This document shows, one piece after another, positions 13,085 to 58,313 of a DNA stretch of 64,000 bases. The stretch is from Wenzhouxiangella sp. 15190 (GTDB lineage: Bacteria > Pseudomonadota > Gammaproteobacteria > Xanthomonadales > Wenzhouxiangellaceae). A program made the position numbers and the translations under genes. Location of the stretch: assembly GCF_003417465.1 (NCBI RefSeq), contig NZ_QVMV01000046.1, positions 1-64,000 on the forward strand, given 5' to 3'. The number at the start of each line of letters is the position of its first letter. The first letter of the stretch is position 1. The notes below the pieces were generated by a model, which had not been told where the DNA came from, did no database searches, and was given only the letters and a program-made list of their open reading frames with translations.

Positions 13085-13256
13085 AAAATCTTATTAACGC
13101 AAAGACGCAAAGCAGCGAAGAACGCAAAGAAATGAATGAATTGGCTTAGAAACTCTCCTTAACCTCACTAAATTGCATCAATGCTTGGGTCTTTGTTCAG
13201 AATATGGTTCCCTTTGCGCTCTTTGCTGCTTCGCGCCTTTGCGTTTGTAAGATTTT
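13085..13256. repeat. Inverted tandem-repeat element, sufD-sufS gap
   Basis: A 45-base left arm (13085-13129) and 45-base right arm (13212-13256) are inverted copies with about 39 of 45 identical positions. Each arm is made of 8-9 base units around CGCAAAG. The 82-base core is unique. The right arm ends on the sufD stop codon and the left arm stops 17 bases before the sufS ATG. In RNA the arms would form a long stem. Confidence 0.85.
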
Positions 13257-14458
13257 CAAAGCACCAATTCCAGCTCACGCAACAACCAATTCCGTAGCGT
13301 CTCATCGGCCAGGCCTTCCAGCGGGGCGGCGGCGAAGCCGTATTTGAGGAGGCGGTTAGCTTCCTCAGTCGGCAGGCCGCGCGAGCGCAGGTAGAACAGC
13401 GCGTCGTCGTCGAGCTGCCCGATGGTCGCACCGTGGGATGCCGTGACATCCTCGGAATAGATTTCGAGTTCCGGCTTGGCGTTGATGCGTGCCATCTCGC
13501 CGAGCAGCAGATTGGCCGTATTCAGATCGGAGTGACTGTCGTCGGCCTCGGCGTGGATGTGGATACGACCGTTGAACACGCCCACGCCGGTACCGTCGGC
13601 CAGAATGCGAAAGGACTCGCGGCTGTTGGTATGCCCGGTGCAGTGCTCGATCGAGGTGTGATAGTCGACGTGCTGCCTGGAGTCGAGCACCACTGTGCCG
13701 TCGATCTCGCCGACCGCGCCGGCCTCGTTGAGAAATACGTTGAGATCCTGTCGGCCCAGACGCGCGCCAGTATCGAGCACGTAGGAACGATATTCGGCGT
13801 CGCGCACCACGTCCACCCGGGTGCGAGCCACGCGCACGGTATCGCCCCCGCCGCGTTGGATGACGTGATCCAGGGCCGCCCCCTGGCGTACCCGGATATT
13901 CGTCACGGCATTGATCATGCCTTCACCGCCGCCGGATTGCGTTTCGACGAGCGAAGCGCGGGCGTTGTCGGCCAGGTCAATGAACAATCTCGGATGGACC
14001 GCCGCGGCAAAATCGTCGGACGTCGTGAAGGCCAGCACCAGCGGAGAATCCAGTTCGCCTTCGATGCCGATCCGCCAGGCCTGTCCGAAACGGGCCAGGT
14101 TGAGCCAGGCGAAGGCGTCTTCACGTCCACCGTATGCGATACCTTCGAAGTCTTCGCGCGTGGCCGGCGTCAGCTTGATGCCATCGGGAAGCTTCGTTTC
14201 ATCAGCGTTGAGGATGCCGTTGTCGAAGTGCAGCACATGGCCGTCGAACGGCAGTTCCGGAAGAGACGATGTCGAAGCGGGCGCCGGCTGGAACTCGCGT
14301 TTTTCGAGCAGCTTGATGGGCGTGTACTTCCAGGCCTCGGTCTTGAGGTCGGGAAATCCATGCTGCATCAGCGCACGCTGCGCGTTTTCGCGCAGGTCGC
14401 TGAAATCGTCGGCAGCCAATGATGACTGGGGAGCGAGTTTTTCCGCTAGTTCACTCAT
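13256..14458 (-). CDS. sufD: SufD subunit of the SufBCD scaffold
   Basis: This 400-residue protein pairs with SufB and SufC to assemble Fe-S clusters in the cytoplasm. The C-terminal beta-helix region carries the family signatures HGATIGQLDDDALFYLRSRG and a histidine-containing SHxxLN-like stretch (DSHSDLNTANLLLG). The ATG at 14458 (MSELAEKL) is 7 bases after sufC. A longer frame to 14572 would overlap sufC and adds no family-like sequence. Confidence 0.94.
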   Translation of the reverse strand: MSELAEKLAPQSSLAADDFSDLRENAQRALMQHGFPDLKTEAWKYTPIKLLEKREFQPAPASTSSLPELPFDGHVLHFDNGILNADETKLPDGIKLTPATREDFEGIAYGGREDAFAWLNLARFGQAWRIGIEGELDSPLVLAFTTSDDFAAAVHPRLFIDLADNARASLVETQSGGGEGMINAVTNIRVRQGAALDHVIQRGGGDTVRVARTRVDVVRDAEYRSYVLDTGARLGRQDLNVFLNEAGAVGEIDGTVVLDSRQHVDYHTSIEHCTGHTNSRESFRILADGTGVGVFNGRIHIHAEADDSHSDLNTANLLLGEMARINAKPELEIYSEDVTASHGATIGQLDDDALFYLRSRGLPTEEANRLLKYGFAAAPLEGLADETLRNWLLRELELVL

Positions 14459-14465
14459 TTGGTTT

Positions 14466-15221
14466 CTAGGCCTCGGCCGCTTCCGTTGCCAGATGCGCGT
14501 ATCCCTCGGCTTCGAGCCGATGGGCGAGTTCCTTGCCGCCTGTCTCGACGATGCGACCATCGGACAGGACATGTACCCGGTCCGGCGTGATGTGTTCGAG
14601 CAGGCGCTGGTAGTGCGTGATCACCATGAAACTGCGATTCGGATCCCGCAGGCGATTGATGCCTTCGGCCACCAGCTTGAGCGCGTCGATGTCCAGGCCG
14701 GAATCGGTCTCGTCGAGTACGGCCAGCTTCGGCTGGAGCACCGCCATCTGGACGATCTCGTTGCGCTTCTTCTCGCCGCCGGAAAAACCTTCGTTGACGG
14801 CGCGCTTGAGCAGCGAATCGTCCATCTTCAGTTGCCCCAGCGTTTCTCGCACGGTCTTGAGAAAGTTCATGGAATCGACTTCCTCCTCGCCGCGGGCCTT
14901 GCGCTGGGCGTTCAGGGCCGAGCGCAGGAAATAGGCGTTGTTCACGCCCGGGATCTCGACCGGGTACTGAAAGGCCAGGAACAATCCGGCGGTGGCGCGT
15001 TCTTCGGGCTCCATACCTTCGAGATCCTTGCCCTCGAACTCGATCGAGCCCTCGGTCACTTCGTAGCCGTCGCGCCCGGCCAGCACGTGGCCCAGCGTCG
15101 ACTTGCCCGAACCGTTCGGGCCCATGATGGCGTGCAGTTCACCGGCGCCGATCTCGAGGTTCAGGCCCTTGAGGATTTCCTTGCCATCGATGGAGGCGTG
15201 GAGGTTGGTAATTTTCAACAT
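14466..15221 (-). CDS. sufC: Fe-S assembly ATPase SufC
   Basis: This 251-residue ABC ATPase powers the SufBCD complex. The Walker A motif is GPNGSGKS at 34-41, the ABC signature reads FSGGEKKRNEI, and Walker B is LAVLDETDSGLD, with the SufC-typical DETDSGLD wording. It lies between sufB and sufD. The 168-base gap to sufB is unusually long for a suf operon and holds an inverted heptamer-repeat element. Confidence 0.95.
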   Translation of the reverse strand: MLKITNLHASIDGKEILKGLNLEIGAGELHAIMGPNGSGKSTLGHVLAGRDGYEVTEGSIEFEGKDLEGMEPEERATAGLFLAFQYPVEIPGVNNAYFLRSALNAQRKARGEEEVDSMNFLKTVRETLGQLKMDDSLLKRAVNEGFSGGEKKRNEIVQMAVLQPKLAVLDETDSGLDIDALKLVAEGINRLRDPNRSFMVITHYQRLLEHITPDRVHVLSDGRIVETGGKELAHRLEAEGYAHLATEAAEA

Positions 15222-15280
15222 ATGGGGATTTGTCTTTGTCCAGTTAGCTCTTTAAGTTGTGGTGCATTCGTTAGGGCTTC

Positions 15281-15348
15281 AGTAAATAGAAAATAGAAAA
15301 TAGTGAAATTGCCCGCCTCTATTTACTTTTTACTATTCACTATTTTCT
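15281..15348. repeat. Inverted heptamer-repeat element, sufB-sufC gap
   Basis: The left arm (15281-15309) is four units of the type AGNAAAT. The right arm (15319-15348) is four units of the same heptamer in inverse orientation plus a two-base remainder. Only 9 bases separate the arms. The stretch is very AT-rich against GC-rich neighbours. Confidence 0.85.
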
Positions 15349-15389
15349 GGTGATCCACCAACGGCACCAGCAGTGAGTTCATCGCACCG

Positions 15390-16831
<1,442 letters not shown>

Positions 16832-16835
<4 letters not shown>

Positions 16836-17293
16836 GAAACTTCCCGTTGAGATGAGGCCACGGCTTCCGCGCGGATGGCGATGCGTCGCGACGATGGCTC
16901 GGCCAGGTCGGCCAGACTCAGGCCCGCCAGGGCACTTTCGACGGCCTGCCCGATCTTTCGCCAGTTGCCCCGCAGGTTGCAGTCGGACTCATGTGAGCAA
17001 AGACCGGGCTCGAGTCCGCATTCGGTCAGGGCGATCGGCCCTTCCATGGCGCTGACGATACCCGCCACCGAGATGTCCTCGGGCGGCTCGGCCAGCTTGT
17101 AGCCGCCGTTGACGCCGCGAATCGAGGTCACCAGGCCGGCACGCGCCAGGGTCTTGAGCACCTTGGCCACCGTGGGCGGTTCGAGCCGGGTCAATTCCGC
17201 CAGCCGGCTGGCAGGCACGCACTCGTCGCGGCGATGCGCCAGTGCCGCCAGAAGTACTGTGGCGTAGTCGGTCAATTTGCTGATTCGAAGCAT
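16832..17293 (-). CDS. Rrf2-family SUF operon regulator
   Basis: This 153-residue protein has an N-terminal winged helix ([15 protein letters not shown], typical of the Xanthomonas-type SUF regulator) and three Cys at C92, C99 and C105 that can hold a Fe-S cluster, as in IscR. It should sense Fe-S status and control its own operon. It is first in the regulator-sufBCDSU unit, right behind a good sigma-70-type promoter. The family name suf_reg fits better than IscR because of both sequence and context. Confidence 0.92.
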
Positions 17294-17322
17294 GGCCTGC
17301 GCCCGCGGAAACTATGCTGTTT

Positions 17323-17351
17323 ATTATGCGGGTCGGGCGGCGCCGAAACAA
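17323..17351 (-). promoter_or_regulatory. Promoter of the suf operon
   Basis: Read on the minus strand, TTGTTT (17351-17346) and CATAAT (17328-17323) are separated by exactly 17 bases. The predicted start is near 17316, about 23 bases before the regulator ATG. No clear IscR-type dyad was found, so the operator is undefined. Confidence 0.75.
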
Positions 17352-17454
17352 GACCAGATTGGTATTGTTTCGGCGGCCGGGTCGTCGCGGCCGGGCGTGA
17401 AACGTTCAGCGTCGCTGGTAAACTGGCGCGGTTACTGAACGGCAATGGGGCCCG

Positions 17455-19284
17455 ATGAACGGCAACGATTTCAGCTTTTCCGTATCCGCCTCGCCCGGCG
17501 GTTCGCCCGCCAGCGAGCCGACGCGCTACCTGGCGCCTCCCTACAATGCGCGGCTCATCGATCGGCAGACGGTTTACCTGCTGATCAGCGGCGAGCCGCA
17601 GGTCAGGGAACTGCCGCTGCCGCTGGTGCAGATCCTGAGTCAGTGCGGTCGCTTCCGGACCCTGGACGAGCATGCGCGGGAAGTGTCGCGTGCGTTGCGC
17701 TTGCCGCCGCCGCGCGCCGCCGAGGTCCGCCGGTCCCTCGAGCGGCTGGTCGAGCTGGGCCTGCTGCTTTCGGAATCCGACGTACTGGCGCGACTGGCGA
17801 GTCGACGCTCGGAGCGGTCGCAAGGTTCGATCGAGGCCCTGTTCATCCGCACCTGCGGCCGACCCGACACCCTTCGCCGCCTCCTGGAATCGCTGGCGGA
17901 ACGGGAACTGCCGGAAGGACTGTCGCACTGCCTCGTGCTCGACGACAGCCGAAATGCCGAAGAACGTGCCGCAACACGCAGCGTGGTTTCGGACTTCGAG
18001 GACCGCCTGGCCGGCAGGTTGCGGCTGATCGACGTCGATCGGCGCCGAGGCCTGATCGATGCGATCACCGCCGAGTCCGGCATCGAGGTCCAACCGCTGC
18101 TCTGGACGCTCGAGGGCGACCCCGACGATCCAGCCCCGAGCTATGGAGCCAGCCTCAACCTGGCCCTGCTGCTGGGGGCCGGCTCGCGCATCGCCATCAT
18201 GGACGACGATGCCAGTTTCGATGCCTTCGAGCTGCCGGGCGTGGAAAGCGCACCCGCCTTTCGCTGCAGCCAGTCGGCGCGAATTCAGTTTCCGGAACCG
18301 GACTGGCAGCTGCCCGGTGATCACTACCCATCGCTCACGCGTCACCCCCTGAGCTGTCACGATGAACTGCTCGGCGCCACCGGCGGCGACCTCGCCGCGC
18401 TGGGTCAAGCCGACCAGCACGGTTTGCTCGAGGACCTGGACCCGCAGCTCCTGCACGAACTCTCGGGTGCGACCCGGGTTCGCCTGACCAGCAGCGGTAC
18501 GCTGGGCGACCCGGGCACGGGCAGTGTGCAGTGGTTGCTGACCGAGGATCCCGAGCATCTGCAGCCGCTGTGCGAAAGCGAAGCCCGCTACCGTGACCTG
18601 CTCGGCCAGCGCCGCCTGGCCCGATGCGCCGACCGCCCCCTGGCCACGACGGCCTTCGCGCTCATGACCACCACGCTGACCGGGATCGACAACCGCGAAC
18701 TACTGCTGCCCACGCAAGCGCGCGGCGCCAACGAGGATCTGCTGTTCGGGGCCCTGGTCGACTTTCTCCATCCCGGATCGTTGCAGCTCAGCCTGCCGCA
18801 CATGCTGTTCCACCTGCGCCCCGAACCGCGTCGCTGGAAGTCCGGGGACTTCGAACATCCGCGCAATATCGAACGCGGCGGCTTCCTGGCGCGACAGGTC
18901 GAAGAACTGGCCAAGACCAGCCGCTCGCACGACCCCGACCGGCGCGCCGACCTGCTCGCCGCTGCCCTGCGCGACCTCGCCCGCTGCGACGACCTGGAGT
19001 GGCGGCTCAAGCGCGAACTGCTGGAAACCCGGGCTGACATGATCGAACAGATCGGAACGACGCGCGAATCACTCAAGCCACCCCCCTGGCTGGACCGGGA
19101 CTTCGAGCGAACGCTTCAGGCCCAGCGCAATATCACGGACAGGGACGGAGAGCGATTGACCAACCTGGCGACCCACCTGCCGGCATTTCTCGAACGGTAT
19201 GCCGACAGTCTTCCGCACTGGCGCCGGGCCTGGCACACCTGCCGGTCGCTCGACCTGGCCAACCTGCTGGACGCCACCGAATGA
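17455..19284 (+). CDS. GT-A-like glycosyltransferase with N-terminal winged-helix-like domain
   Basis: This 609-residue protein is not a recognised named family. Residues about 28-110 are rich in short helices and end in a dimer-like pattern (LPLPLVQILSQCGRFRTLDE...VRRSLERLVELGLLL) that resembles PqqD/winged-helix folds. From about 125 on, a nucleotide-sugar-type fold begins (ALFIRTCGRPDTLRRLLESL, CLVLDDS), followed by a D250-D-D252 triplet in AIMDDDASFD, like the metal-binding DxD of GT-A enzymes. The C-terminal 200 residues are helical. No membrane segment is visible. Its stop overlaps the amgK start (ATGA), so the two are coupled; a link with cell-wall sugar recycling is possible but unproven. 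Confidence 0.65.
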   Translation: MNGNDFSFSVSASPGGSPASEPTRYLAPPYNARLIDRQTVYLLISGEPQVRELPLPLVQILSQCGRFRTLDEHAREVSRALRLPPPRAAEVRRSLERLVELGLLLSESDVLARLASRRSERSQGSIEALFIRTCGRPDTLRRLLESLAERELPEGLSHCLVLDDSRNAEERAATRSVVSDFEDRLAGRLRLIDVDRRRGLIDAITAESGIEVQPLLWTLEGDPDDPAPSYGASLNLALLLGAGSRIAIMDDDASFDAFELPGVESAPAFRCSQSARIQFPEPDWQLPGDHYPSLTRHPLSCHDELLGATGGDLAALGQADQHGLLEDLDPQLLHELSGATRVRLTSSGTLGDPGTGSVQWLLTEDPEHLQPLCESEARYRDLLGQRRLARCADRPLATTAFALMTTTLTGIDNRELLLPTQARGANEDLLFGALVDFLHPGSLQLSLPHMLFHLRPEPRRWKSGDFEHPRNIERGGFLARQVEELAKTSRSHDPDRRADLLAAALRDLARCDDLEWRLKRELLETRADMIEQIGTTRESLKPPPWLDRDFERTLQAQRNITDRDGERLTNLATHLPAFLERYADSLPHWRRAWHTCRSLDLANLLDATE

Positions 19285-20273: not shown

Positions 20274-20279
20274 GGTTCC

Positions 20280-22339: not shown

Positions 22340-22342
22340 GCT

Positions 22343-22618
22343 AGGGAACCTCTGAACAACTCTGCACGGAGCGCGTTTTGTCGGAGAAGCCGCAGATCGT
22401 GTGGTGCGACGCGAGTGACAGTAGCCGTAGCTACGGCCGAGCGGCGCAACGCGCGAGATGCGGCCTCTCCGGCAAAACCCTTCGGGACGGGCCTTTGCGG
22501 GGTCTCCGCTCCGTTTCGGCTCACTCATTTGGAATGACCAAATCACGTTCGCCGAAGCCGGAACGGAGCCTCCCGCAAAGACCCGTCGCGCCCGTGCAGA
22601 GTTGTTCAGAGGTTCCCT
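22343..22618. mobile_element. MITE-like palindromic element with 27-bp perfect terminal inverted repeats
   Basis: The ends at 22343-22369 and 22592-22618 are perfect 27-base inverted copies. Inside are two further hairpins: 22375-22394 with 22459-22478 (18 of 20 paired), enclosing the 14-base palindrome GCCGTAGCTACGGC at 22424-22437, and 22486-22520 with 22551-22587, capped by ATTTGG-N5-CCAAAT. No protein is supported inside. The right end supplies the last residues and stop codon of phoA. No clear target duplication is seen. A relic end is at 11780-11813. It could be a non-autonomous transposon or a structured RNA gene. Confidence 0.75.
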
Positions 22619-24355: not shown

Positions 24356-24512
24356 TTTCGTTCTTTGGTTGAATCGATCGTTCGTTGCTCGACAGGACTT
24401 CGCCACAAGTTGCTCCATGGTGGCTACACGTCTTCAAAGAAACGCCTTCTCCAAACTCAACGCTGAACGAAAGAACGAAGGAACGAAGAAACGAAGGAAC
24501 GAAGAAACGACG
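24356..24512. repeat. Inverted octamer-repeat element, phoA-lipoprotein gap
   Basis: The right arm (24465-24512) is six tandem 8-base units around GAACGAAG. The left arm (24356-24390) holds degenerate inverse copies (TTTCGTTC, TCGTTCGTTGC). The core is about 74 bases. Here the purine-rich arm is on the right, the reverse of the other loci. Confidence 0.7.
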
Positions 24513-24521
24513 GAATGAAAC

Positions 24522-24550: not shown

Positions 24551-24588
24551 TAGTACCACACAGACAGAACATCCCCGGAGGGAGTTGA

Positions 24589-32186: not shown

Positions 32187-32885
32187 GTGAGTGCCGGCGA
32201 TCTTCCGCGCCTGGTCATCCTGCTGTCGGGCCGCGGCAGCAATTTTCGGGCAATTCACGATGCCATCGTAGCCGGGAAGATTAACGCGGAAATCGCTGCG
32301 GTGATCTCTGACCGCCCCGATGCACCGGGCCTGCAGCTCGCCGCCGACGCCGGCATCGACACGGTGACCCTGGAGCGGGCCCGCTTTGCCGGTCGCGAAG
32401 CCTTCGAACGCGGCCTGGAGACCGCCATTGCGGGATTCGAGCCGAAGTACGTGGTCCTGGCCGGCTTCATGCGGGTGCTCGGGGCGGACTTCGTCAACCG
32501 GCACCTCGGAAGCCTGATCAACATTCACCCCTCGCTGCTGCCGCGCCACCGCGGACTGAACACGCACCAGCGCGTGCTCGATGCCGGTGAGCGCGAGCAC
32601 GGTGCGAGCGTTCATTTCGTCACGCCCGCCCTCGACGCCGGTCCCGTCCTCAGCCGTGTGACAATCGACGTTCGCGACGACGACGATGCCGACATGCTGG
32701 CCGACCGCCTGCTGCCACTGGAACACCGGCTCTATCCCGCCACACTGGCACTTTTGCTCAATCACCGGGTCGAATTACGCCATGAAACCATTCAGATCGA
32801 TGACCAAGCACTTGATCGGCCGCTGGATCTTGACCGCGATCTTGATCCTGACGGCCATCTGCTCGACCACCGCCATGGCGGCTGA
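32187..32885 (+). CDS. purN: Phosphoribosylglycinamide formyltransferase
   Basis: This 232-residue enzyme formylates GAR using 10-formyl-THF. GRGSNFRAI marks the phosphate loop, and INIHPSLLP plus HFVTPALDAGP hold the catalytic Asn, His and Asp. The start is GTG. The last ~20 residues form a Asp/Arg/His-rich tail (such as PLDLDRDLDPDG) not typical of PurN; it is encoded over the DUF3108 gene, which starts inside purN. Confidence 0.93.
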   Translation: MSAGDLPRLVILLSGRGSNFRAIHDAIVAGKINAEIAAVISDRPDAPGLQLAADAGIDTVTLERARFAGREAFERGLETAIAGFEPKYVVLAGFMRVLGADFVNRHLGSLINIHPSLLPRHRGLNTHQRVLDAGEREHGASVHFVTPALDAGPVLSRVTIDVRDDDDADMLADRLLPLEHRLYPATLALLLNHRVELRHETIQIDDQALDRPLDLDRDLDPDGHLLDHRHGG

Positions 32886-33561
32886 CGGTCCCCCGCTGCC
32901 GGCCCATGAAGCCACCTACGAGGTTCTGCGCCACGGCAAGAAGGTGGGGGAATTGATGGTCAGCCTGGAACAACTCGATACCGGTGTGTGGCACTACCAA
33001 TCCGACACGCGCGCCACTGCCTGGTGGGCGCGTGCACTCGATCTCGCGGCCGAGGAAGCGGCCCACTTCGTCTGGCGCGACGATCGCATCATGATGCTCA
33101 CCTACCACCATGCCCAGCACGCCCCGGCCAACAACCGCTTCTTCCAGCACCGTACCGACTGGGAAGCCGGCACCACCAGAGTGCGCACCGAAAATGGCAG
33201 CCAGACCGTTGAACTGGTCGACAACATGGTCGATCCCTTGAGCCTGCGCCTGCAACTGGCCGTCAACCTGGCCGATGAATCACAACGGCGGACCACACAC
33301 GATTTCACGCTGCTCGACCGCGACGAGGTCAAGCACAAGCGCTACACCTTCGACGGCGAAGAGCGTATCGACGTGCCGGCTGGCTGTTTCGACGCTGTAC
33401 GCATCCGCCGCATCGAAAAGCCCGAATCGGACAAGAACAACCTGTCCTGGCACGCCGCCGACTTCTACTGGATGCCGGTCCGCATCCTGCGCCAGGAGGA
33501 CGGCAAGGACAAGCTCGACATCCGGCTGCTGGAGACCGACCTGCCGCTGAACGGTTGCTAG
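32782..33561 (+). CDS. DUF3108 domain protein, exported
   Basis: This 259-residue protein has a signal peptide (LIGRWILTAILILTAICSTTAMA) and the DUF3108 fold: YEVLRHGKKVGE near the start and YWMPVRI near the C-terminus. It follows purMN in many gammaproteobacteria. The first in-frame ATG at 32782 overlaps purN by 104 bases; an ATG at 32800 fits the signal peptide equally well. Its role is unknown. Confidence 0.82.
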   Translation: MKPFRSMTKHLIGRWILTAILILTAICSTTAMAADGPPLPAHEATYEVLRHGKKVGELMVSLEQLDTGVWHYQSDTRATAWWARALDLAAEEAAHFVWRDDRIMMLTYHHAQHAPANNRFFQHRTDWEAGTTRVRTENGSQTVELVDNMVDPLSLRLQLAVNLADESQRRTTHDFTLLDRDEVKHKRYTFDGEERIDVPAGCFDAVRIRRIEKPESDKNNLSWHAADFYWMPVRILRQEDGKDKLDIRLLETDLPLNGC

Positions 33562-33568
33562 TCCTGGG

Positions 33569-33690
33569 TTGGCTTGTTGGCTTGTTGGCTTGTTGGCTTG
33601 TTGGCCAATGATATCCGTGGCTCGCAGACCTGAAGCGGCAAAGCCGCCCCGCGAAGCGACAGGCTGCCGAACCAGCAAACCACCGAACAA
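33569..33690. repeat. Tandem octamer element with degenerate inverse partner
   Basis: Four exact copies of TTGGCTTG plus a partial fifth lie at 33569-33606. A degenerate inverse arm with spaced CCGAAC/CAAACC blocks is at 33665-33690. The core is 58 bases. Confidence 0.6.
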
Positions 33691-33694
33691 GTCC

Positions 33695-33714
33695 GTCGGC
33701 GATGTAACGCCGAC
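33695..33714. other. Hairpin upstream of M48 gene
   Basis: GTCGGCG at 33695-33701 and CGCCGAC at 33708-33714 form a perfect 7-bp stem with a 6-base loop. No T-run follows, so it may be a factor-dependent terminator of purMN-DUF3108 or only a structure. Confidence 0.4.
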
Positions 33715-33795: not shown

Positions 33796-35082
33796 ATGTA
33801 CCGAATCATCAGCATCCTCGCCGTCCTGCTCCTGCTGGCCGGTTGTGCCACCAACCCGGTCACGGGCGAGAGTCAGTTCAGCCTCTACGGAGAAGAATGG
33901 GAACATCAGGTCGGCGCCCAGCAGTACGCCCCGATGCGCCAGGCCCAGGGCGGTGACCTGGTCATCGACGAATCCGCGGTCGACTATGTCCAGTCCGTGG
34001 GACGGCGAATCGCGCAGTATTCCGATCGCGAGCTCCCGTACGAATTCCAGGTCATCAACAGTTCGGTGCCCAATGCCTGGGCTCTGCCGGGCGGCAAGCT
34101 CGCAATCAACCGCGGACTGTTGACCGAGCTGGGCTCGGAGGCCGAGCTGGCCGCCGTGCTCGGCCACGAGATCGTGCATGCCGCAGCCCGCCACAGCGCC
34201 CATGCCGCCTCGCGCGCCGCCCTGGCACAGGGCGCGGTCATCCTGGGCACCGTGGCCGTCGGCGCCAGCACCGAAGATGACCAATACACCCAGGTCGCCA
34301 TGCTTGGGGGGATGATCGGCGCCCAGCTCATCCAACAGCGCTATTCGCGCGACGCCGAGCGCGAAGCCGACTACTACGGCATGAAGTACATGAAGGACGC
34401 CGGCTACGACCCGGCCGCCGCCGTCGACTTGCAGGAGACGTTTGTGCGCCTGTCGGAGAACCGGCAATCGGGCTGGCTGAACGGCCTGTTCGCCTCGCAT
34501 CCGCCCTCGCCCGAGCGCGTCGAGAACAACAGGAAAAGGGCCGACGAACTGGGCCGCGGCGGGCGCATCGGCCGCGAGGAATACCAGCAGCAGATGGCCT
34601 ACCTGCAACAGCTTCAGCCCGCCTACGAGGCGCACGACGATGGCCGCAAGGCCCTTCAGGAGGGCAATGTCGACGAAGCGCTCGCAAAGGCACGGGAAGC
34701 ACTGGCCGTCGAAGACGGCGAAGCCCTGTTCCACGCCCTGCGTGGCGACGCGCTGGCCACGCGCGAGGATTTCGCAGCGGCCGAACGTGCGTTCTCGGCA
34801 GCACTGGAGCGGGATTCGAGCTGGTTCTACCACCATTTGCGCCGCGGCATGGTGCGCGCGCAACGCGAGCAGTGGTCCGGCGCCCGCTCCGACCTGAAAG
34901 CGAGTCTCGGGATGCTGCCGACCGCCGACGGCCACCTCCACCTGGGCAACATCGAGCGCGCCACGGGCAATCGCCAGCAGGCTATCGAACACTACCGGAC
35001 CGCGGCCCAGTCCGACACGCCCGCCGGCGAACGTGCCCGGCAGCACCTGGTCGAGATGGGCGCCGTCCAGTCGCAGGGGTAG
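33796..35082 (+). CDS. M48 metalloprotease with TPR repeats, lipoprotein
   Basis: This 428-residue protein has a lipoprotein signal (ILAVLLLLAGC), an M48 peptidase domain with zinc motif HEIVH and third ligand in EREAD, and a C-terminal TPR array of about 150 residues. The layout resembles BepA/YfgC, which checks outer-membrane protein assembly and degrades stalled LptD. It should work on the periplasmic face. The stop codon lies at the start of a tandem-repeat arm, so the repeat abuts the gene directly. Confidence 0.9.
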   Translation: MYRIISILAVLLLLAGCATNPVTGESQFSLYGEEWEHQVGAQQYAPMRQAQGGDLVIDESAVDYVQSVGRRIAQYSDRELPYEFQVINSSVPNAWALPGGKLAINRGLLTELGSEAELAAVLGHEIVHAAARHSAHAASRAALAQGAVILGTVAVGASTEDDQYTQVAMLGGMIGAQLIQQRYSRDAEREADYYGMKYMKDAGYDPAAAVDLQETFVRLSENRQSGWLNGLFASHPPSPERVENNRKRADELGRGGRIGREEYQQQMAYLQQLQPAYEAHDDGRKALQEGNVDEALAKAREALAVEDGEALFHALRGDALATREDFAAAERAFSAALERDSSWFYHHLRRGMVRAQREQWSGARSDLKASLGMLPTADGHLHLGNIERATGNRQQAIEHYRTAAQSDTPAGERARQHLVEMGAVQSQG

Positions 35083-35332
35083 GGTTCAGGGTTCAGGGTT
35101 CAGGGTTCAGGGTTCAGGCGGCGCGCTGAATGTTTGCGGGCCGGCTCTGCCGGGAAGGGTTTGCGGGAGGCGGATGGTTTAACGGATTCGGGGTTTCGGA
35201 CTCGAAGTTCGTTGGCCCCTACCACTGCATCCGGCTAGCACTGCGCGATGCTTTTCGGCAACGCGGCTTCAGTCTTCTCCCAACGCTCCTGAACCCTGAA
35301 CCCTGAACCCTGAACCCTGAAACCTGAACCCT
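35081..35332. repeat. Inverted heptamer-repeat element between convergent genes
   Basis: The left arm is five exact copies of AGGGTTC (35081-35115, plus three bases) whose first base belongs to the M48 stop codon. The right arm is six copies of GAACCCT, its inverse, at 35291-35332 with one substitution. The core is about 172 bases and unique. The right arm ends 4 bases before the stop of the EamA gene. Confidence 0.9.
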
Positions 35333-44869: not shown

Positions 44870-44954
44870 AACCGCGAAGACTCAAAGTTCGCAAAGTTAA
44901 TGAATGAAAGTTTATCCATTCCCAATCTTTGCGTTCTTAGCGCTCTTCGCGGTT
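44870..44954. repeat. Inverted nonamer-repeat element, DUF6165-pnp gap
   Basis: The left arm (44870-44906) and the right arm (44917-44954) are inverse copies built of 9-base units around CGCGAAGA and CGCAAAG. Pairing is roughly three quarters. The core is about 10 bases. The unit is close to that of the sufD-sufS element. Confidence 0.8.
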
Positions 44955-47121: not shown

Positions 47122-47146
47122 TTCACTCACTCCACTTTGCACTTGC

Positions 47147-47188: not shown

Positions 47189-47215
47189 CGGTATCAATCG
47201 GATAAAATCCGCTTC

Positions 47216-50825: not shown

Positions 50826-50842
50826 CGTCTAGAAACCCTGGT

Positions 50843-52817: not shown

Positions 52818-54010
52818 GGTTCACCTCTCATCAGTTGCAATTCGATATGGGATTGTCTTGCCGCCAGCGCGCGGCGAATTCGCTCGCGGCTCGCGGCCAA
52901 TTCCGTTCGGTGGGCGTCGATCAGTTCAAGCACCCCGATCTCGCCCGCCCGGTAGGCGCTCTCGGCGATTTCGGCCAGGGACTCGGCGTCCTGGATCTCG
53001 CTCAACGCCAGTGCGGCGCTGCGACGCGCCTCGAGTTCGCGGGCGGCGCTTCTGATCTCGGACGTCAGTCGTGAAATCATCAATTCGCGTTCGGCGGCGA
53101 GCCGACGCGCCTGGGCGCTTTCGGCCTGGGCCCGCCCGGCCCCGCGGTCGAACAGGGGCACTTCCAGGCCCACCATGAAGAGATTGCCGCTGGCCGAAAT
53201 TCCGGGCTCGTCGAGTTCGCGCCGGCCCACGCCCAGCGTCATTTCCGGCCAGCGGCCGCGCTCGGCCGCCCGAGCAGAAAGTTCGGCAGCCCGGATTTCC
53301 GCGTTTAGGGCCCGCAACTCGGGATGGTCGGCCACCAGGTGGCGCGGCTCCGCGACCTTCGACATCGGCGGGAGCAGTTCTCCGGCCAGTTCGACCGGCT
53401 CATGCTCGATCAGACCGAACAAGCGGTCGCGCGCGGAAGCCGCCCGGGCCTGCGTCTCCAGTCGGTCACCTTTGAGCGCGGCGAGTTCGTGGCGCAATCG
53501 CAACGCGTCGAATCGGGAGGCGTCCCCTGCCCGCGCACGCTCATCGACGTCGGCGACCAGCTGCGCCAGGCGGTCGTGCCAGCGATCTACCGCCTCGGCC
53601 TGACTAGACGCCGCCAGGGCGTCGTAGAAGTGCCGACGGATCAGCGCCGCCTGCTCGTTGCGGTCCAGGTCGATGCGCGCGCCGCTGGCGGCGCTTCGGA
53701 AACGTGCCGAGCGCCGCTCGAGTCCATGGACGCCGGCGAGATTGAACCGCTGTCGAAGCCAGTAAAAGTGGTCTTCGACGGCACCGCCGGCGAGGTCGGC
53801 TTCTTCATAGCTGTACTCGATCTCCGGGTTGTCCCACTGGCCGGCCGTGCGGGCGAGGCCATCGGCCTGAGCTCTTCCCGCTTCCAGCCAACCCGCAAAA
53901 TCCGATCTTTCGAGCCCGATCCGAACCGCTTCGGCTTCGGAAAGATACGGCTGGGCGTAGGCATGCAAGGAGACAGCCAGCAACCCGATGAGGGCGAGAA
54001 ATTTCGACAT
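52814..54010 (-). CDS. TolC-family outer-membrane efflux protein
   Basis: This 398-residue protein has a signal peptide (SKFLALIGLLAVSLHAYA) and two halves rich in long helices with periodic Arg/Ala/Glu, as in CusC/CzcC. FDALRLRHELAALKGDRLETQ and VGLEVPLFDRGAGRAQAESA mark the repeats. The ATG at 54010 starts the signal directly and lies one base from the M56 stop. Confidence 0.9.
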   Translation of the reverse strand: MSKFLALIGLLAVSLHAYAQPYLSEAEAVRIGLERSDFAGWLEAGRAQADGLARTAGQWDNPEIEYSYEEADLAGGAVEDHFYWLRQRFNLAGVHGLERRSARFRSAASGARIDLDRNEQAALIRRHFYDALAASSQAEAVDRWHDRLAQLVADVDERARAGDASRFDALRLRHELAALKGDRLETQARAASARDRLFGLIEHEPVELAGELLPPMSKVAEPRHLVADHPELRALNAEIRAAELSARAAERGRWPEMTLGVGRRELDEPGISASGNLFMVGLEVPLFDRGAGRAQAESAQARRLAAERELMISRLTSEIRSAARELEARRSAALALSEIQDAESLAEIAESAYRAGEIGVLELIDAHRTELAASRERIRRALAARQSHIELQLMRGEP

Positions 54011-54011
54011 G

Positions 54012-54971
54012 TCAGGCTCCCAGGATGGCACCCAGAAAGGTCTCCATGGCGTGATGCGCGCCTGCCAGCGGCCAGGCCGAGGCCAGGGCCATGACGCCCA
54101 GGGCAACGGCAGCCCAGTCAGCGGCGGCAGAAGCCCGCCCGCCATCGTCAAGCAGCCGCTCGACGCGAAATGCGACGTTCGCACCCCCGGCCGAAAGACC
54201 GGCGGTGGCGGGAAAGTGCTGCTGCCGGACCACCTTGAGCAAGACCTGCGCCGTGATGGAGCGGCCGAAGCGAAGCGCAACCCGATCGTCGGCGCGTTCT
54301 TCGATTGCCTGGCGCCAATTGGCCCGCAGGCGCTTGGCCATGGCCGGCCAGTGAACCGTCAGCAGCCATTCGAACAGCGACGACTTGACGAGATCGCCCT
54401 GACGCAAATGGGCGGCTTCATGGGCGACGACCACGCGCCGCTCACGTCGATCGAGCCCCTCGAGCAGCCCGCGCGAAATCAGGAGCACGGGCCGAAGCGG
54501 CCTTGCCACCAACGCCATCGAACGTCTGTCTTCGATGCGACGCATCAAGCCGCCGGTGGGCAGCAGGCGCAACAGCCCGTTGAGACGCCTGCGCCGACCC
54601 AACGCAGCCATCAAGTGGCGAACGGCGGTAACCGCCAAGACTGCCAGCACCAATAGCAGCGCCGCAGCTGCCAGCGGGTCGACCTGAAAGGCCGGAAAGT
54701 GTTCGAAACAGAGATGGGGATGCCCATCGCCGTGGGCCCGGCAGTGATCGTCCAACCAGCCCGCGCGCTTGCCGGCAGCCACCGCGCCGAGCGATGCGAT
54801 CCAGGTCACCGGAAGCAGCCAGGGCAAAAGCGCCACCAGCGTAGTCCGCCGAATCCGGCGATCAGGCGACTCTGGCTCGCAAGACCATCTCGACAGCATG
54901 CTCGACAGCACGATGCCGACCGCCCAGGCCAGCACGCCCAGAACCAGAAACATCGTGAGCAACTCGATCAC
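54012..54971 (-). CDS. M56 family (BlaR1-like) metallopeptidase sensor
   Basis: This 319-residue protein has about four membrane helices and the M56 zinc motif HEAAH in VVVAHEAAHLRQGD. Unlike BlaR1 it has no penicillin-binding domain. The loop after helix 2 holds H76, C77, H80, H84, H86, C88 and H91, a candidate metal site facing the periplasm. By family logic, ligand binding triggers cleavage of the BlaI-type repressor. The GTG start at 54971 overlaps the repressor stop by 4 bases. Confidence 0.87.
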   Translation of the reverse strand: MIELLTMFLVLGVLAWAVGIVLSSMLSRWSCEPESPDRRIRRTTLVALLPWLLPVTWIASLGAVAAGKRAGWLDDHCRAHGDGHPHLCFEHFPAFQVDPLAAAALLLVLAVLAVTAVRHLMAALGRRRRLNGLLRLLPTGGLMRRIEDRRSMALVARPLRPVLLISRGLLEGLDRRERRVVVAHEAAHLRQGDLVKSSLFEWLLTVHWPAMAKRLRANWRQAIEERADDRVALRFGRSITAQVLLKVVRQQHFPATAGLSAGGANVAFRVERLLDDGGRASAAADWAAVALGVMALASAWPLAGAHHAMETFLGAILGA

Positions 54972-55345
54972 CGCGATTCCTCTTGGCGCCGGCGATTCAG
55001 GACGGCCTCCAGCCGCTCGATGGTGGCTTCGTCCATGCCCTCGGCCGACTCCACGAAGGCAGCAATGGAGGCCGCCGGGTCGCCGCCCAACCGGCCCAAC
55101 ATGTCCCGCATGTAGGCGGCAACCAGTTCGTCCCGGCAAACCTTCGGCGAATATCGAAACGCATGGCCTTGCTTGCGGCGTTTCACCAGCTGCTTGCGGT
55201 GCAGGCGCTCGAGGGTCGACTGGACCGTGTTGAGAGAAATACCCCGCTCCACGCCCATGCAATCGTGAAGCGCCTTGGCCGTCCACTCGGACTCGGTCCA
55301 GAGCCGTTCCATCACGGCGACTTCAAGGTTACCGAGCAAAGGCAT
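54968..55345 (-). CDS. BlaI/MecI/CopY-type repressor
   Basis: This 125-residue winged-helix protein has the BlaI pattern: LGNLEVAVMERLW at the start and GISLNTVQSTLERLHRKQLVKRRKQGHAFRYSP over the recognition helix and wing. It is the first gene of a six-gene metal efflux operon. The ATG at 55345 is preferred because the predicted transcript begins near 55407, which makes the in-frame GTG at 55411 unusable. Confidence 0.88.
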   Translation of the reverse strand: MPLLGNLEVAVMERLWTESEWTAKALHDCMGVERGISLNTVQSTLERLHRKQLVKRRKQGHAFRYSPKVCRDELVAAYMRDMLGRLGGDPAASIAAFVESAEGMDEATIERLEAVLNRRRQEESR

Positions 55346-55413
55346 GGGCGAACGGATGTCGCTGGCGTTATCGCTTGACACTTTTTCTGGATCTCGCGCG
55401 AACCGGGGCACGA

Positions 55414-55442
55414 AGTCTACGCAGGCAAAAACCGAGCGTCAA
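55414..55442 (-). promoter_or_regulatory. Promoter of the metal efflux operon
   Basis: On the minus strand TTGACG (55442-55437) and TAGACT (55419-55414) are separated by exactly 17 bases. The predicted start is near 55407. Confidence 0.7.
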
Positions 55443-55451
55443 TCGGTTTTT
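55427..55451. promoter_or_regulatory. Candidate BlaI-type operator dyad
   Basis: AAAAACCG-N9-CGGTTTTT is a perfect 8+8 dyad covering the -35 and spacer of the promoter. It does not match the known TACA/TGTA bla box, so binding by this repressor is inferred from position only. Confidence 0.55.
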
Positions 55452-55531
55452 ACGGCTAACGAGTCAGGGCTCGAAGCCCGGATAGGCCTCGTTGGTCTTC
55501 ATGCAATGAGCCAACCACCCGGCCAACCCGC

Positions 55532-55537
55532 TACAAT
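55532..55537 (+). promoter_or_regulatory. Candidate -10 for liuB
   Basis: TACAAT lies 28 bases before the ATG at 55565. The -35 is weak or absent. Confidence 0.35.
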
Positions 55538-55564
55538 GAAACGCTTTGACCGACTGGAGCGCCC

Positions 55565-57172
55565 ATGCCCCGCCTGGACAGCCACGTCAACCGCAAGGAC
55601 GCCGATTTCGTCGCCCGCGACGAGCATCACCGGCAACTGGCCGCCGACCTGCGCGAGAAACTCGAGCGAACCGCGCTGGGCGGGCCGGAGAAGTCACGCG
55701 AAAAGCACGAGGGTCGTGGCAAGCTGCTTCCACGCGAGCGCGTGCGCACCCTGCTCGACCCCGGCAGCCCGTTCCTGGAGGTCGCGCCGCTGGCGGCCTT
55801 TGGGCTGTACGAGGATGCCGCGCCCGGCGCGGGCATCATCACCGGCGTGGGGCGCGTCAATGGCGTCGAGTGCATGGTCGTGGCCAACGACGCCACGGTG
55901 AAGGGCGGTACCTACTACCCCATCACGGTCAAGAAACACCTGCGCGCCCAGGAAATCGCGCTGGAGAACAACCTGCCCTGCATCTACCTGGTCGATTCCG
56001 GCGGCGCCTTCCTGCCGTTGCAGGACGAGGTCTTCCCCGACCGCGACCATTTCGGCCGCATCTTCTACAACCAGGCGCGACTGTCGGCGAAGAACATCCC
56101 GCAGATCGCGGTCGTGATGGGCTCGTGCACCGCCGGCGGGGCCTATGTGCCGGCAATGTGTGACGAGGCGATCATCGTCAAGGAACAGGGCACGATCTTT
56201 CTCGGTGGCCCACCGCTGGTCAAGGCCGCCACCGGCGAGGAAGTCGATGCCGAAACGCTGGGCGGCGCGGACGTGCACACCCGCCTGTCCGGCGTGGCCG
56301 ACCATTTCGCCGAAAACGACACCCATGCGGTGGCCATCGCACGTGAGCTGGTCGGCAACCTCAATCGTCCCGAGCCGGCCTTCGGTCCGAGTGAAGAACC
56401 GAGCGAGCCGGCCTGGACCGTCAAGGACATCTACGGCATCCTGCCCGACGACACCCGCTACCCCTTCGAGGTGCGCGAGATCATTGCCCGCATCGTCGAC
56501 GGCTCGGAGTTCACGGAGTTCAAGGCCCGCTACGGCACCACCCTGGTCTGCGGCTTCGCGTCGATTCACGGTTACAAGGTGGGCATCGTCGCCAACAACG
56601 GCATCCTGTTTTCCGAGTCGGCCCTGAAAGGCGCGCATTTCATCGAACTGTGTAACCAGCGCAACATCCCGCTGGTATTCCTGCAGAACATCACCGGCTT
56701 CATGGTCGGCAAGAAATACGAGCAATCGGGTATCGCCCGCGACGGCGCCAAGATGGTCACCGCCGTGGCCTGCTCGCATGTACCCAAGTTCACGGTGGTC
56801 ATCGGCGGCTCCTTCGGTGCCGGCAACTACGCCATGTGCGGCCGCGCCTACCAGCCGCGCTTCCTGTGGATGTGGCCCAATGCCCGCATCTCCGTGATGG
56901 GCGGCGACCAGGCCGCCAGCGTGCTCGCCACAATCAAGCGCGACGCGCTGGAAGCACGCGGCGAGGAGTGGTCGGACGACGAGGAAGAGAAGTTCAAGGC
57001 GCCGATCCGTGACCAGTACGAACACCAGGGGCATCCCTACTACGCCAGCGCACGCCTTTGGGACGACGGCATCATCGATCCCGTCGATACACGGCGCGTG
57101 CTTGGCCTGGCCATCGCGGCTTCCGCCAACGCCCCGATCGAACGGGGGCGCTTCGGCGTATTCCGGATGTAG
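55565..57172 (+). CDS. liuB: Methylcrotonyl-CoA carboxylase beta subunit
   Basis: This 535-residue carboxyltransferase moves CO2 from biotin to 3-methylcrotonyl-CoA in leucine breakdown. It has the double crotonase fold with [30 protein letters not shown] and [19 protein letters not shown], which set MCC-beta apart from propionyl-CoA carboxylase. liuC and the alpha subunit follow in order. The upstream dehydrogenase (liuA) is not in this block. Confidence 0.92.
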
Positions 57173-57180
57173 CGGAAAAA

Positions 57181-57321
57181 GTGTTAAGTGTTAAGTGTTA
57201 AGTGTGAAGTGTGCAGGTGTTAGGTGTTAGGTGTTAGGTGTTAGGTGTTATGCGGCGAGCTTAGCCCTTGGTGCACAACTTCAACGTGACTGCCGAAACT
57301 TAACACTTCACACTTTACACC
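57181..57321. repeat. Inverted heptamer-repeat element, liuB-liuC gap
   Basis: The left arm is ten 7-base units at 57181-57250: three GTGTTAA, GTGTGAA, GTGTGCA, and then five GGTGTTA. The right arm at 57297-57321 is about 3.5 inverse units. The core is 46 bases. The left arm shows two unit variants in blocks, as if the array had expanded twice. Confidence 0.88.
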
Positions 57322-57373
57322 GACGACTAGGCCCACCACTGGGTGAGTAGCCAAAAACGTACGAGATCAGACC

Positions 57374-58168
57374 ATGACTGACCTGCTTAAACTCAAAATC
57401 GACGACCGCGGCGTGGCCACGGTGACGCTCAACCGGCCCGAGGTGCACAACGCCTTCAACGCCGAGCTGGTGGCCGAGCTGTCGGAGACTTTCGACAAGG
57501 TCGCCAAGGAGAATGCACGGGCCATGATCCTCACCGGCGAGGGCCACAGCTTCTCTGCCGGGGCGGATCTCAACTGGATGCGCTCGATGGCCGAAGGCTC
57601 GGAAGCCGAGAACCGCGACGATGCCAAGCGTCTGGCGGCCATGCTGCGCAAACTGGACCAGCTGGCCTGCCCGACCGTTGCACGCGTCAACGGTCACGCC
57701 TTCGGCGGCGGCGTGGGCCTGATCGCCTGCTGCGACCTGGCCGTGGCGCTCGAGACCGCAAAGTTCGGCCTGACGGAAGTGCGCCTGGGCCTGGCGCCGG
57801 CGACCATCGCGCCGTTCGTCATCCCGCGCATCGGCGTCAACAATGCCCGTCACTACATGCTCACCGGTGAGCGCGTCGACGCCGAACGCGCCGTGCATAT
57901 CGGCCTGGTCAGCGATACCGTACCCACCGGCCAGCTCGACGGCCACGTGGCCGACCTGGTCGACCTGCTGCTCGCCGGCGGCCCGCACGCGCAGGCGCAC
58001 TGCAAGGAATTGATCCACACCATCGCCAGCGGCCGTCACGATGAAGCCGAAACCGACCGCCGCACCTCCGAACTGATCGCCGCCCTGCGCGTCTCCCGAG
58101 AAGGCCAGGAAGGCCTCAACGCCTTCCTCGAAAAGCGTAAGCCGTCCTGGATTGCAGGCGATTCCTGA
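57374..58168 (+). CDS. liuC: Enoyl-CoA hydratase, likely methylglutaconyl-CoA hydratase
   Basis: This 264-residue crotonase hydrates an enoyl-CoA; in this context 3-methylglutaconyl-CoA to HMG-CoA. NRPEVHNAFN, GHSFSAGADLNWM and AFGGGVGLIACCDLA contain the oxyanion-hole and acid/base regions. It sits between the two MCC subunits. The exact substrate is inferred from neighbours. Confidence 0.88.
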   Translation: MTDLLKLKIDDRGVATVTLNRPEVHNAFNAELVAELSETFDKVAKENARAMILTGEGHSFSAGADLNWMRSMAEGSEAENRDDAKRLAAMLRKLDQLACPTVARVNGHAFGGGVGLIACCDLAVALETAKFGLTEVRLGLAPATIAPFVIPRIGVNNARHYMLTGERVDAERAVHIGLVSDTVPTGQLDGHVADLVDLLLAGGPHAQAHCKELIHTIASGRHDEAETDRRTSELIAALRVSREGQEGLNAFLEKRKPSWIAGDS

Positions 58169-58178
58169 AAAATCTTTA

Positions 58179-58313
58179 TGTCCACAGATAAACACAGATT
58201 AAAAACAACAGGCGAGCCAAACGAGGTGGATTGGGTAGATCCCGATTCTTCCATCGAGCGCCCGCACCCGGACTCTTTCTTTATCTGTGTTCATCTGTGT
58301 TCATCTGTGGACA
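58179..58313. repeat. Inverted decamer-repeat element, liuC-liuD gap
   Basis: The right arm (58280-58313), read inversely, has three units of CACAGATGAA type. The left arm (58179-58203) has two. The first 21 bases of the arms match at 20 positions. The core is 76 bases. Confidence 0.85.

What the first reader, a model, noticed from the sequence alone, without database searches (positions are those of the whole stretch)
13085..58313. A family of intergenic inverted tandem-repeat elements with locus-specific units
At least eight gaps have the same plan: a head-to-tail array of short units on one side, its inverse on the other, and a unique core. Units are 7 bases at 15281, 35081 and 57181, 8 at 24356 and 33569, 8-9 at 13085, 9 at 44870 and 10 at 58179, and the sequences are mostly unrelated. 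The arms often end within a few bases of a start or stop codon. Constant layout with changing sequence points to a mechanism that makes inverted arrays locally (for example hairpin-templated slippage), or a protein that reads structure. I know of no named class for it.
Basis: partly seen in the sequence, partly recalled or inferred. Interest (0 to 1): 0.8.

Follow-up and report, generated by a model that had tools for sequence, protein, structure and literature searches.

The report
Single-gene mobile elements with repeat-array ends
The paired repeat arrays in this window look like the ends of tiny mobile DNA elements that carry no gene or one small gene, sit just behind the stop codons of other genes, occur in many bacterial phyla, and show no known transposase of their own.

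Summary
The arrays are real and far above chance, but not isolated local products. They are ends of two related kinds of small element. In one, 8-10-base units flank a GxxExxY gene (PF13366/TIGR04256, nuclease fold nearest Cas4 and lambda exonuclease). In the other, mostly 7-base units flank an S23 four-helix-bundle gene (PF05635/TIGR02436), the protein of 23S rRNA intervening sequences. Arms were found at 103 of 134 GxxExxY and 47 of 58 S23 loci tested. Seven of eight window elements match arms of a gene-bearing element in the genus; the window copies lack the gene. Two genus-mates with neither gene showed none in 200 kb each. Cyanobacterial plasmids give filled and empty versions of one site, so the elements move. 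They sit beside stop codons in tight gaps; gene-bearing copies read with the operon in 60 of 61 co-directional contexts. Left and right arms change together without the G.U excess an RNA stem predicts. Nearest known: 23S rRNA intervening sequences and the heptamer repeats of Xanthomonas and cyanobacteria. How they move is inferred, not shown.

The parts
13085..13256 (.). Gene-less element, GxxExxY class (8-base ACGCAAAG); arms 13085-13129 and 13212-13256, core 82 bp; between sufS and sufD, right arm ending on the sufD stop codon
   Evidence: left arm scores 37.5 against arms of GxxExxY loci L120 (G016) and L126 (G003), best of 40 shuffles 15.5; SufS and SufD by NCBIfam
15280..15349 (.). Gene-less element, S23 class (7-base AAATAGA/GTAAATA); arms 15280-15309 and 15321-15349, core 11 bp; between sufC and sufB
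   Evidence: matches S23 locus L136 of the same genome, 19.5 and 20.5 vs best shuffle 13.5 and 14.5; SufC, SufB
24357..24519 (.). Tandem array (GAACGAAG, 24465-24519) with a weak partner (24357-24392); unassigned, polarity opposite to the others
   Evidence: no gene-bearing match above shuffles in the usual orientation; not seen at the orthologous gap of G003 and G016
33568..33705 (.). S23-class element (8-base GTTGGCTT); clean left array 33568-33605, diverged right arm about 33665-33705; left array starts 6 bases after the stop of the ORF 32686-33561
   Evidence: matches S23 loci L155 (G000) and L147 (G024), 28 vs best shuffle 14; right arm 21 vs 12.5
35075..35332 (.). Gene-less element, S23 class (7-base AGGGTTC); arms 35075-35118 and 35288-35332, core 169 bp
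   Evidence: matches S23 locus L153 (G003), 23.5 and 26 vs best shuffle 13.5 and 14
44870..44954 (.). Gene-less element, GxxExxY class (ACCGCGAAG, 8-9 bases); arms 44870-44896 and 44927-44954
   Evidence: matches L117, the GxxExxY locus of the same genome, 19.5 vs best shuffle 13
57181..57320 (.). Gene-less element, S23 class (7-base AAGTGTT/AGGTGTT); arms 57181-57250 and 57298-57320
   Evidence: matches S23 locus L160 (G018), 23.5 and 18 vs best shuffle 17.5 and 11
58179..58313 (.). Gene-less element, GxxExxY class (10-base CCACAGATGAA); arms 58179-58202 and 58290-58313; left arm 10 bases after the stop of the enoyl-CoA hydratase-like gene 57374-58168
   Evidence: matches GxxExxY loci L132 (G024, gene incomplete) and L108 (G003), 18.5 and 23 vs best shuffle 12 and 11.5; neighbour

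Best explanation
The window arrays are ends of small mobile elements (70 bp to about 560 bp) without a transposase of their own. Full forms carry one gene, usually in sense with the host operon: a GxxExxY protein (nuclease fold near Cas4 and lambda exonuclease) with 8-10-base arms, or an S23 four-helix-bundle protein with mostly 7-base arms. The window elements are gene-less relatives with the same arms. SHOWN: the arm-protein pairing, insertion (filled versus empty sites, a nested insertion), placement beside stop codons, sense orientation of gene-bearing copies, joint change of the two arms, and, on samples, dependence of element class on the genes within the genus. INFERRED: (1) the protein recognises the tandem units, which is why unit and protein change together (about 0.6); (2) copies integrate preferentially just 3' of stop codons in operons, perhaps on short duplications that keep stop and start codons, rather than being placed there by selection alone (about 0.5); (3) the two arms fold back on one DNA strand, slip by whole units, and repair synthesis copies units across, which spreads a new unit to both arms (about 0.45). 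For S23 elements the chemistry would have to come from host enzymes, since a helical bundle with no known catalytic site is not expected to cut DNA (recalled).
For: Arms: GxxExxY 103 of 134 and S23 47 of 58 loci, mirror control 3 of 134 and 1 of 58; Y1 loci 3 of 11 (none periodic), RT loci 0 of 8; best period 7 in 0 of 87 GxxExxY and 37 of 44 S23 elements with a clear period. Window arms match gene-bearing arms for 7 of 8. Genus: G007 and G023 (neither gene) 0 elements in 200 kb each, G017 (no S23) no 7-mer element in 200 kb, G012 (no GxxExxY) three 7-mer elements; 25 genomes, class-A arm counts higher with PF13366, Mann-Whitney p=0.0006. Insertion: sites A, D and E and a nested insert of about 180 bp in L318. 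Target: residual gap <=40 bp in 43 of 58 gene-bearing elements vs 2.1% for length-weighted random insertion; gene-less ones 31 of 46 stop distances within -8..+16. Orientation 51:1 and 9:0. Arm-protein co-change r=0.41 (n=99) and 0.565 (n=46), 0 of 999 permutations each. No G.U excess. Fold.
Against: No movement was observed and no activity is known for either protein here. Arm-protein correlation also follows from shared descent. 31 of 134 GxxExxY and 11 of 58 S23 loci show no arms at the cut used. Cores of gene-less elements do not match interiors of gene-bearing ones, so they are not simple internal deletions. 24356 is unassigned. G013 (net 4) and G003 (net 5, high control) have PF13366 but few class-A arms, and G001 and G021 have net 17 and 16 without a hit, though 65% complete. 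In G012 the mirror control gives 4 hits against 5, so its count rests on reading the three 7-mer arms by eye. The strict samples of G018 (80 kb) and G019 (133 kb) gave no 7-10-mer element although both have the genes; G018 does have one at the gap of 57181 and two long 7-mer arrays. Per gap rather than per base, 51% of other gaps are <=60 bp vs 23 of 40 for gene-less elements, so targeting and selection for operon sites are not fully separated. One array-flanked ORF (Aulosira, L323) runs against its neighbours; it is outside the orientation count.
Confidence: 0.72

Rival explanations
1. RNA-level explanation: the elements are tolerated intercistronic stem-loops like 23S rRNA intervening sequences; arms stay complementary because the transcript stem is cut by RNase III or protects mRNA, and selection alone leaves them between cistrons.
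For: The S23 intervening sequence of Coxiella is cut by RNase III in its stem (passages of PMC4990558); sense orientation in 60 of 61 co-directional contexts and operon placement.
Against: Selection for an RNA stem should enrich G.U over A.C mismatches on the sense strand; counts were 91 vs 113 (GxxExxY, 103 elements) and 30 vs 38 (S23, 47 elements). Placement beside stop codons is also tight for gene-less copies.
Confidence: 0.2
2. Elements moved in trans by a known enzyme (REP-associated Y1 transposase, reverse transcriptase, or an IS transposase), with S23 and GxxExxY as passengers.
For: Gene-less copies with near-identical dispersed arms look MITE-like; 3 of 11 Y1 loci have flanking inverted repeats.
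Against: Y1 hits are 0 in the element-bearing G003, G016 and G024, RT hits 0 in G000, G003 and G016; no Y1 or RT locus had periodic arms; unit class follows the S23 or GxxExxY gene. DDE and other IS transposases were not searched.
Confidence: 0.15
3. Purely local origin: hairpin-templated slippage or template switching makes inverted arrays in place from chance palindromes; no mobile element.
For: Left and right arms stay matched while units differ between elements; array lengths vary between relatives.
Against: Near-identical arms at unlinked places, empty sites and a nested insertion, dependence on two genes in samples, the same arm types across phyla.
Confidence: 0.05

Closest known systems
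23S rRNA intervening sequences (IVS) with S23 protein
   Same: S23 ORF, terminal inverted repeats, about 430 bp, sense orientation; the Coxiella IVS has two or three tandem heptamers (GACAGAT) before the ORF (PMC4990558, passages)
   Different: Here between protein genes beside stop codons, many copies, gene-less derivatives, arms made of tandem arrays on both sides; RNase III excision untested
Xanthomonas GGGAATC and Nostoc GGGGA(C/T)T heptamer repeats (PMC4692102)
   Same: Intergenic tandem 7-mers, some as inverted pairs, mostly within 50 bp of stop or start codons (passages); an array with GGGAATC units flanks a partial S23 gene in G035, same order as the window (L149)
   Different: Described there as quadruplex-forming repeats, generally not associated with mobile elements; no S23 link seen in the passages
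TAACTGA heptamer repeats of Beggiatoaceae and cyanobacteria (PMC4679880)
   Same: Intergenic 7-mers with patchy spread across phyla (passages)
   Different: Direct repeats with a single inverted case; mostly before start codons
Cas4 / lambda exonuclease / LHK-Exo nucleases
   Same: Best structural hits of the GxxExxY model (E 0.006-0.04, none under 0.001); invariant E, D-x9-E-x-K and Q-x3-Y
   Different: GxxExxY is a separate, smaller family; activity unknown
REP/REPIN with RAYT
   Same: Dispersed intergenic inverted repeats in many copies (recalled)
   Different: Not tandem arrays; no Y1 transposase hit in three element-bearing genomes

Membership tests
23S rRNA intervening sequence (S23 type) | S23 / four-helix-bundle ORF | tested here: met
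   gene-bearing 7-base class: TIGR02436 at 116 and 106 bits vs cut-off 24 for two proteins; 2GSC matched by one. Window copies lack the ORF
23S rRNA intervening sequence (S23 type) | Inverted terminal repeats flanking the ORF | tested here: met
   47 of 58 S23 loci
23S rRNA intervening sequence (S23 type) | Location inside a 23S rRNA helix | tested here: not met
   window elements: no rRNA or other Rfam match in the window. Fetched S23 loci were not scanned for rRNA
23S rRNA intervening sequence (S23 type) | Excision of the transcript by RNase III | not testable with these tools
   needs RNA
REP/REPIN-RAYT | Y1 (RAYT) transposase in the genome | tested here: not met
   0 hits in G003, G016, G024; 3 in G000
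REP/REPIN-RAYT | Short palindromes, not tandem arrays (recalled) | tested here: not met
   arms are periodic at 7-10 bases
Retron / DRT / group II intron | Reverse transcriptase gene | tested here: not met
   0 hits of PF00078 in G000, G003, G016
MITE of a known insertion sequence | Ends shared with an element that carries a transposase | tested here: inconclusive
   ends are shared with S23 and GxxExxY elements; known IS ends were not searched
Intergenic heptamer repeats (Xanthomonas, cyanobacteria) | Tandem 7-mers in gaps near stop or start codons | tested here: met
   7-base class only
GxxExxY family (TIGR04256) | Model score above the curated cut-off | tested here: met
   136.6 and 147.1 bits vs 35 for two genus proteins

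The most novel reading that the evidence does not exclude
A phylum-spanning class of transposase-less, single-gene mobile DNA in which a small nuclease (GxxExxY) or an S23 oligomer reads tandem units, inserts sense-oriented copies just behind stop codons, and rebuilds both arms by DNA synthesis on a slipped hairpin, so that unit sequence and protein co-evolve. 23S rRNA intervening sequences would be the rRNA-resident members of a much larger family.
Probability: 0.4. Interest if true: 0.93.

Novelty: new variant of a known kind. Interest (0 to 1): 0.86.

Why it matters
It would join several unexplained things: the widespread, uncharacterised GxxExxY proteins, the S23 protein of rRNA intervening sequences, and the intergenic heptamer repeats of Xanthomonas and cyanobacteria. 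It suggests a mobile-element type with no recognisable transposase that uses stop codons as safe sites. It makes two questions testable: what S23 does, and how inverted arrays keep both arms alike while the unit changes.

Tried and rejected
Y1/RAYT and reverse-transcriptase drivers: searched in 41 genomes each, no hit in several element-bearing genomes. RNA-stem selection: no G.U excess. Gene-less copies as internal deletions of gene-bearing ones: at E 0.01 the alignments listed for 7 window elements fall in the arms (best six rows per element shown). Other genes between array pairs: 100 fetched stretches scanned for pairs up to 1.5 kb apart gave 9, which by their ORFs look like two neighbouring elements around a host gene. 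Rfam: no match in the window at gathering scores. PADLOC: weak Cas4 hits for one GxxExxY protein (E 0.007, 0.013), none for one S23 protein. Literature: the listings show no paper that joins GxxExxY or S23 to intergenic arrays; the library holds only openly licensed papers. I saw passages of three papers and listings of the rest.

Rows dropped: L128 (second piece of the L122 gene), L069 and L159 (left out of the arm table), L106, L163 and L268 (flank under 60 bp); proteins too short or broken (99 of 103 and 46 of 47 elements kept); period-6 hits of G012, G018 and G019 (1, 18, 209) set aside as probable low complexity and not explained; loci above 55% or 60% G+C or shorter than 2,500 bases in the target tests. 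Arm tests used the best-scoring loci each search gave: all 28 matches, 30 loci each (one of 39 already held), 80 of at least 555 relatives. A first translation pass read some loci on the wrong strand and was redone.
Full report
OBSERVATION. The places at 24356 and 33569 have one clean array and a weak partner. A stricter periodic filter keeps 5 in the window and 16 in 333,665 bp sampled from the rest of the same genome (3.13 Mb, 55 contigs), with 0 in three dinucleotide shuffles of each and 0 and 2 in a mirror-image control.

RECURRENT FAMILIES. The sample elements use recurring units (AGTGTGA, GGTTTCA/GGGTTCA, GAAAATA, CGAAATA, CACGGAA, GTTGGCTT). The 48-bp arm of the 13085 element recurs at other places in G000, G003, G016 and G024 at about 83-94% identity. 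At the same sufS-sufD gap, G016 and G015 carry the same family, G011 and G019 related GCAAAG-type units, G003 AGGTTTC, G024 CACGGAA and G022 CACCGAA, while G018, G012 and G005 show none (read by eye). Across the eight window gaps and four syntenic relatives (G003, G016, G018, G024), four gaps (13085, 15280, 33569, 57181) hold an element of another unit family in at least one relative (by eye; the one at 33569 is weak).

TWO PROTEINS. In G024 the sufC-sufB gap holds 10-base arms around a GxxExxY gene. Arms (inverted alignment >=14 within 260 bp of the matched stretch) flank GxxExxY genes in 24 of 26 loci (genus and order), 24 of 29 (phylum) and 55 of 79 (named genomes of many phyla), and S23 genes in 24 of 29 and 23 of 29. 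Mirror controls are 0, 1, 2, 0 and 1. Y1 loci give 3 of 11, none periodic; RT loci 0 of 8 (single arms). Among elements with a clear period, GxxExxY arms are 8-12, mostly 8-10 (0 of 87 at 7), and S23 arms 7 in 37 of 44 (six at 8, one at 9). In evenly drawn samples of the phylum PF13366 occurs in 64 and PF05635 in 62 of 398 genomes.

WINDOW ELEMENTS PLACED. Compared with 300 arms of 150 gene-bearing elements, 7 of 8 window elements match one in the genus in the same outer-to-inner orientation above the best of 40 shuffles: 13085, 44870 and 58179 to GxxExxY; 15280, 33569, 35075 and 57181 to S23. For 15280, 33569 and 44870 a partner lies in the same genome (L136, L155, L117). 24356 matches none in that orientation. 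The cores do not match interiors of gene-bearing elements.

PRESENCE FOLLOWS THE GENES. In 25 genus genomes, net counts of class-A arms (pattern, control subtracted) are 4-135 in the 17 with PF13366 and -4 to 17 in the 8 without (Mann-Whitney p=0.0006). Five of those 8 are 63-84% complete; G007, G012 and G023 are 95-99% complete with net -2, 4 and 0. Scans of sampled stretches gave 0 elements in G007 and G023 (200 kb each, neither gene), no 7-mer element in G017 (200 kb, no S23; one 8-10-mer and one other), and in G012 (289 kb, one S23, no GxxExxY) three 7-mer, one 8-10-mer and one other hit with a mirror control of 4; by eye the three 7-mers are genuine arms and the other two GC-rich chance. 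Against this, the samples of G018 (80 kb) and G019 (133 kb) gave no 7-10-mer element although both have the genes; G018 has one at the gap of 57181 and two long 7-mer arrays.

MOBILITY. Cyanobacterial plasmids supply filled and empty sites. L304 (Calothrix) carries an S23 element between an integrase gene and the next gene; L310-L312 have three bases between stop and start there. L314, L316 and L318 carry an S23 element where L305, L315, L317, L320 and L322 have three bases between stop and start; L319 and L321 have another small ORF there. L305 is filled at the next junction, where four others overlap by one base and four have 2-4 bases. L318 also holds a gene-less element of about 180 bp with the same units inside its S23 gene, uninterrupted in L314 and L316, so arms and core arrived together. 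Possible short duplications (TTCTA at one site, ATG at another) were read by eye and are not proven. Sites B and C were too diverged to place ends.

TARGET AND ORIENTATION. For 58 gene-bearing elements in loci of at most 55% G+C, both neighbours run the same way in 49; the gap left after removing the element has a median of 17.5 bp and is <=40 bp in 43 of 58, against 2.1% for random insertion weighted by gap length and 36.5% of 96 other gaps counted singly. With G+C up to 60%, co-directional neighbours share the element gene's direction 51:1 (GxxExxY) and 9:0 (S23); 18 further elements lie in convergent or divergent gaps. An array-flanked ORF of Aulosira (L323) that runs against its neighbours is an exception outside that count. 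Elements with arms too close to hold such a gene behave alike: 41 in 703,606 bp of four genomes, none inside a called gene, 30 of 40 between co-directional genes, 31 of 46 distances to stop codons within -8..+16 bp, residual gap <=60 bp in 23 of 40 against 3.5% by length and 51% per gap. For these, insertion looks about equally likely per gene junction whatever its size, as expected for an anchor at the stop codon. Gene calls were heuristic and start codons were chosen nearest the element, so only stop distances are firm.

ARMS. Arm similarity rises with protein identity (Mantel r=0.41, n=99 and 0.565, n=46; 0 of 999 permutations each; inverse-orientation control 0.05 and -0.03). Within an element, left and right arms are far more alike (0.68, 0.72) than arms of different elements (0.30, 0.23); the arms were found by that likeness, which favours the first figure. 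Shared descent explains part of the correlation. On the sense strand G.U mismatches are not commoner than A.C (91 vs 113; 30 vs 38), which speaks against RNA-stem selection and for pairing or copying at DNA level.

PROTEINS. Ten GxxExxY proteins keep E (of GxxExxY), D-x9-E-x-K and Q-x3-Y (reading these as PD-(D/E)XK motifs is recalled). The AlphaFold model of the L260 protein (44 sequences, pLDDT 95) is nearest SSO0001, LHK-Exo and lambda exonuclease, E 0.006-0.04, none under 0.001 (that SSO0001 is a Cas4 is recalled). One S23 protein matches 2GSC (XCC0516 of Xanthomonas campestris) and 2RLD; PMC4990558 reports the Xanthomonas protein as a toroidal homopentamer of four-helix bundles (passage).

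KNOWN RELATIVES. The Coxiella intervening sequence has an S23 ORF, a 28-bp terminal inverted stem cut by RNase III, and two or three tandem heptamers before the ORF (PMC4990558, passages): the anatomy of the 7-base class at another kind of place. Xanthomonas and Nostoc heptamer arrays, some in inverted pairs near stop and start codons, were described as quadruplex-forming and generally not associated with mobile elements (PMC4692102, passages). Four S23 genes on Nostoc and Calothrix plasmids are flanked by short inverted arrays, in three of a 7-base type (GGGAGTA, GGGTGTA, TAGCTGT). I found no paper that joins these or describes GxxExxY elements (searches under tried and rejected).

MECHANISM. 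Most likely, copies arrive just 3' of stop codons in operons, helped by a protein that recognises the tandem units; on single-stranded DNA the arms pair, slip by whole units, and repair synthesis copies units across, which keeps both arms alike while the unit drifts. Association, insertion, placement and arm matching are shown; recognition, targeting and the hairpin copying step are inferred. The S23 class has no obvious catalytic part, so host enzymes would have to do the chemistry.

VERDICT. I file it as a new variant of a known kind because the 7-base class shares its protein and anatomy with a 23S rRNA intervening sequence; the GxxExxY class taken alone would be closer to a new kind.

Noticed in passing
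window 22343-22618: A 33-bp inverted repeat (AGGGAACCTCTGAACAACTCTGCACGGAGCGCG) with 211 bp between the arms and nested inverted repeats inside; not a tandem array, MITE-like.
   Followed up: no
sufC-sufB gap in G016 and G018 (orthologous to window 15222-15394): The gap holds a non-tandem inverted pair GTAGGTCGGGGTCGCATCCCCGA..., so a REP-like element type uses the same gap.
   Followed up: no
L105, L107, L112, L113, L124, L174, L175, L180: Inner arm units appear to be translated as the protein N-terminus (ATGAACGCGGAT = MNAD; MNTD; NHKDTK), so array and reading frame overlap.
   Followed up: partly
L046 (G022, sufS-sufD gap): One side of the element with its core is repeated several times in tandem, a likely rearrangement at the arms.
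   Followed up: no
L085 8300-9422 and L092 10665-11830: Two elements of the same 10-base family flank an enoyl-CoA hydratase-like gene, a composite-transposon-like layout.
   Followed up: no
G018 (L097-L100) and G019 (L374-L383): 18 and 209 inverted hits with period 6, set aside as probable low complexity; cause unknown.
   Followed up: no
L318 447-1050: A gene-less element with units TCAGGAG/TCAGAAT sits inside the S23 gene of an element with the same units: an element within an element.
   Followed up: partly
L323 1820-2335: At the junction used by L304's relatives, an Aulosira plasmid has TTCAAAA arrays around a reverse-strand ORF of 122 codons annotated as hypothetical.
   Followed up: no
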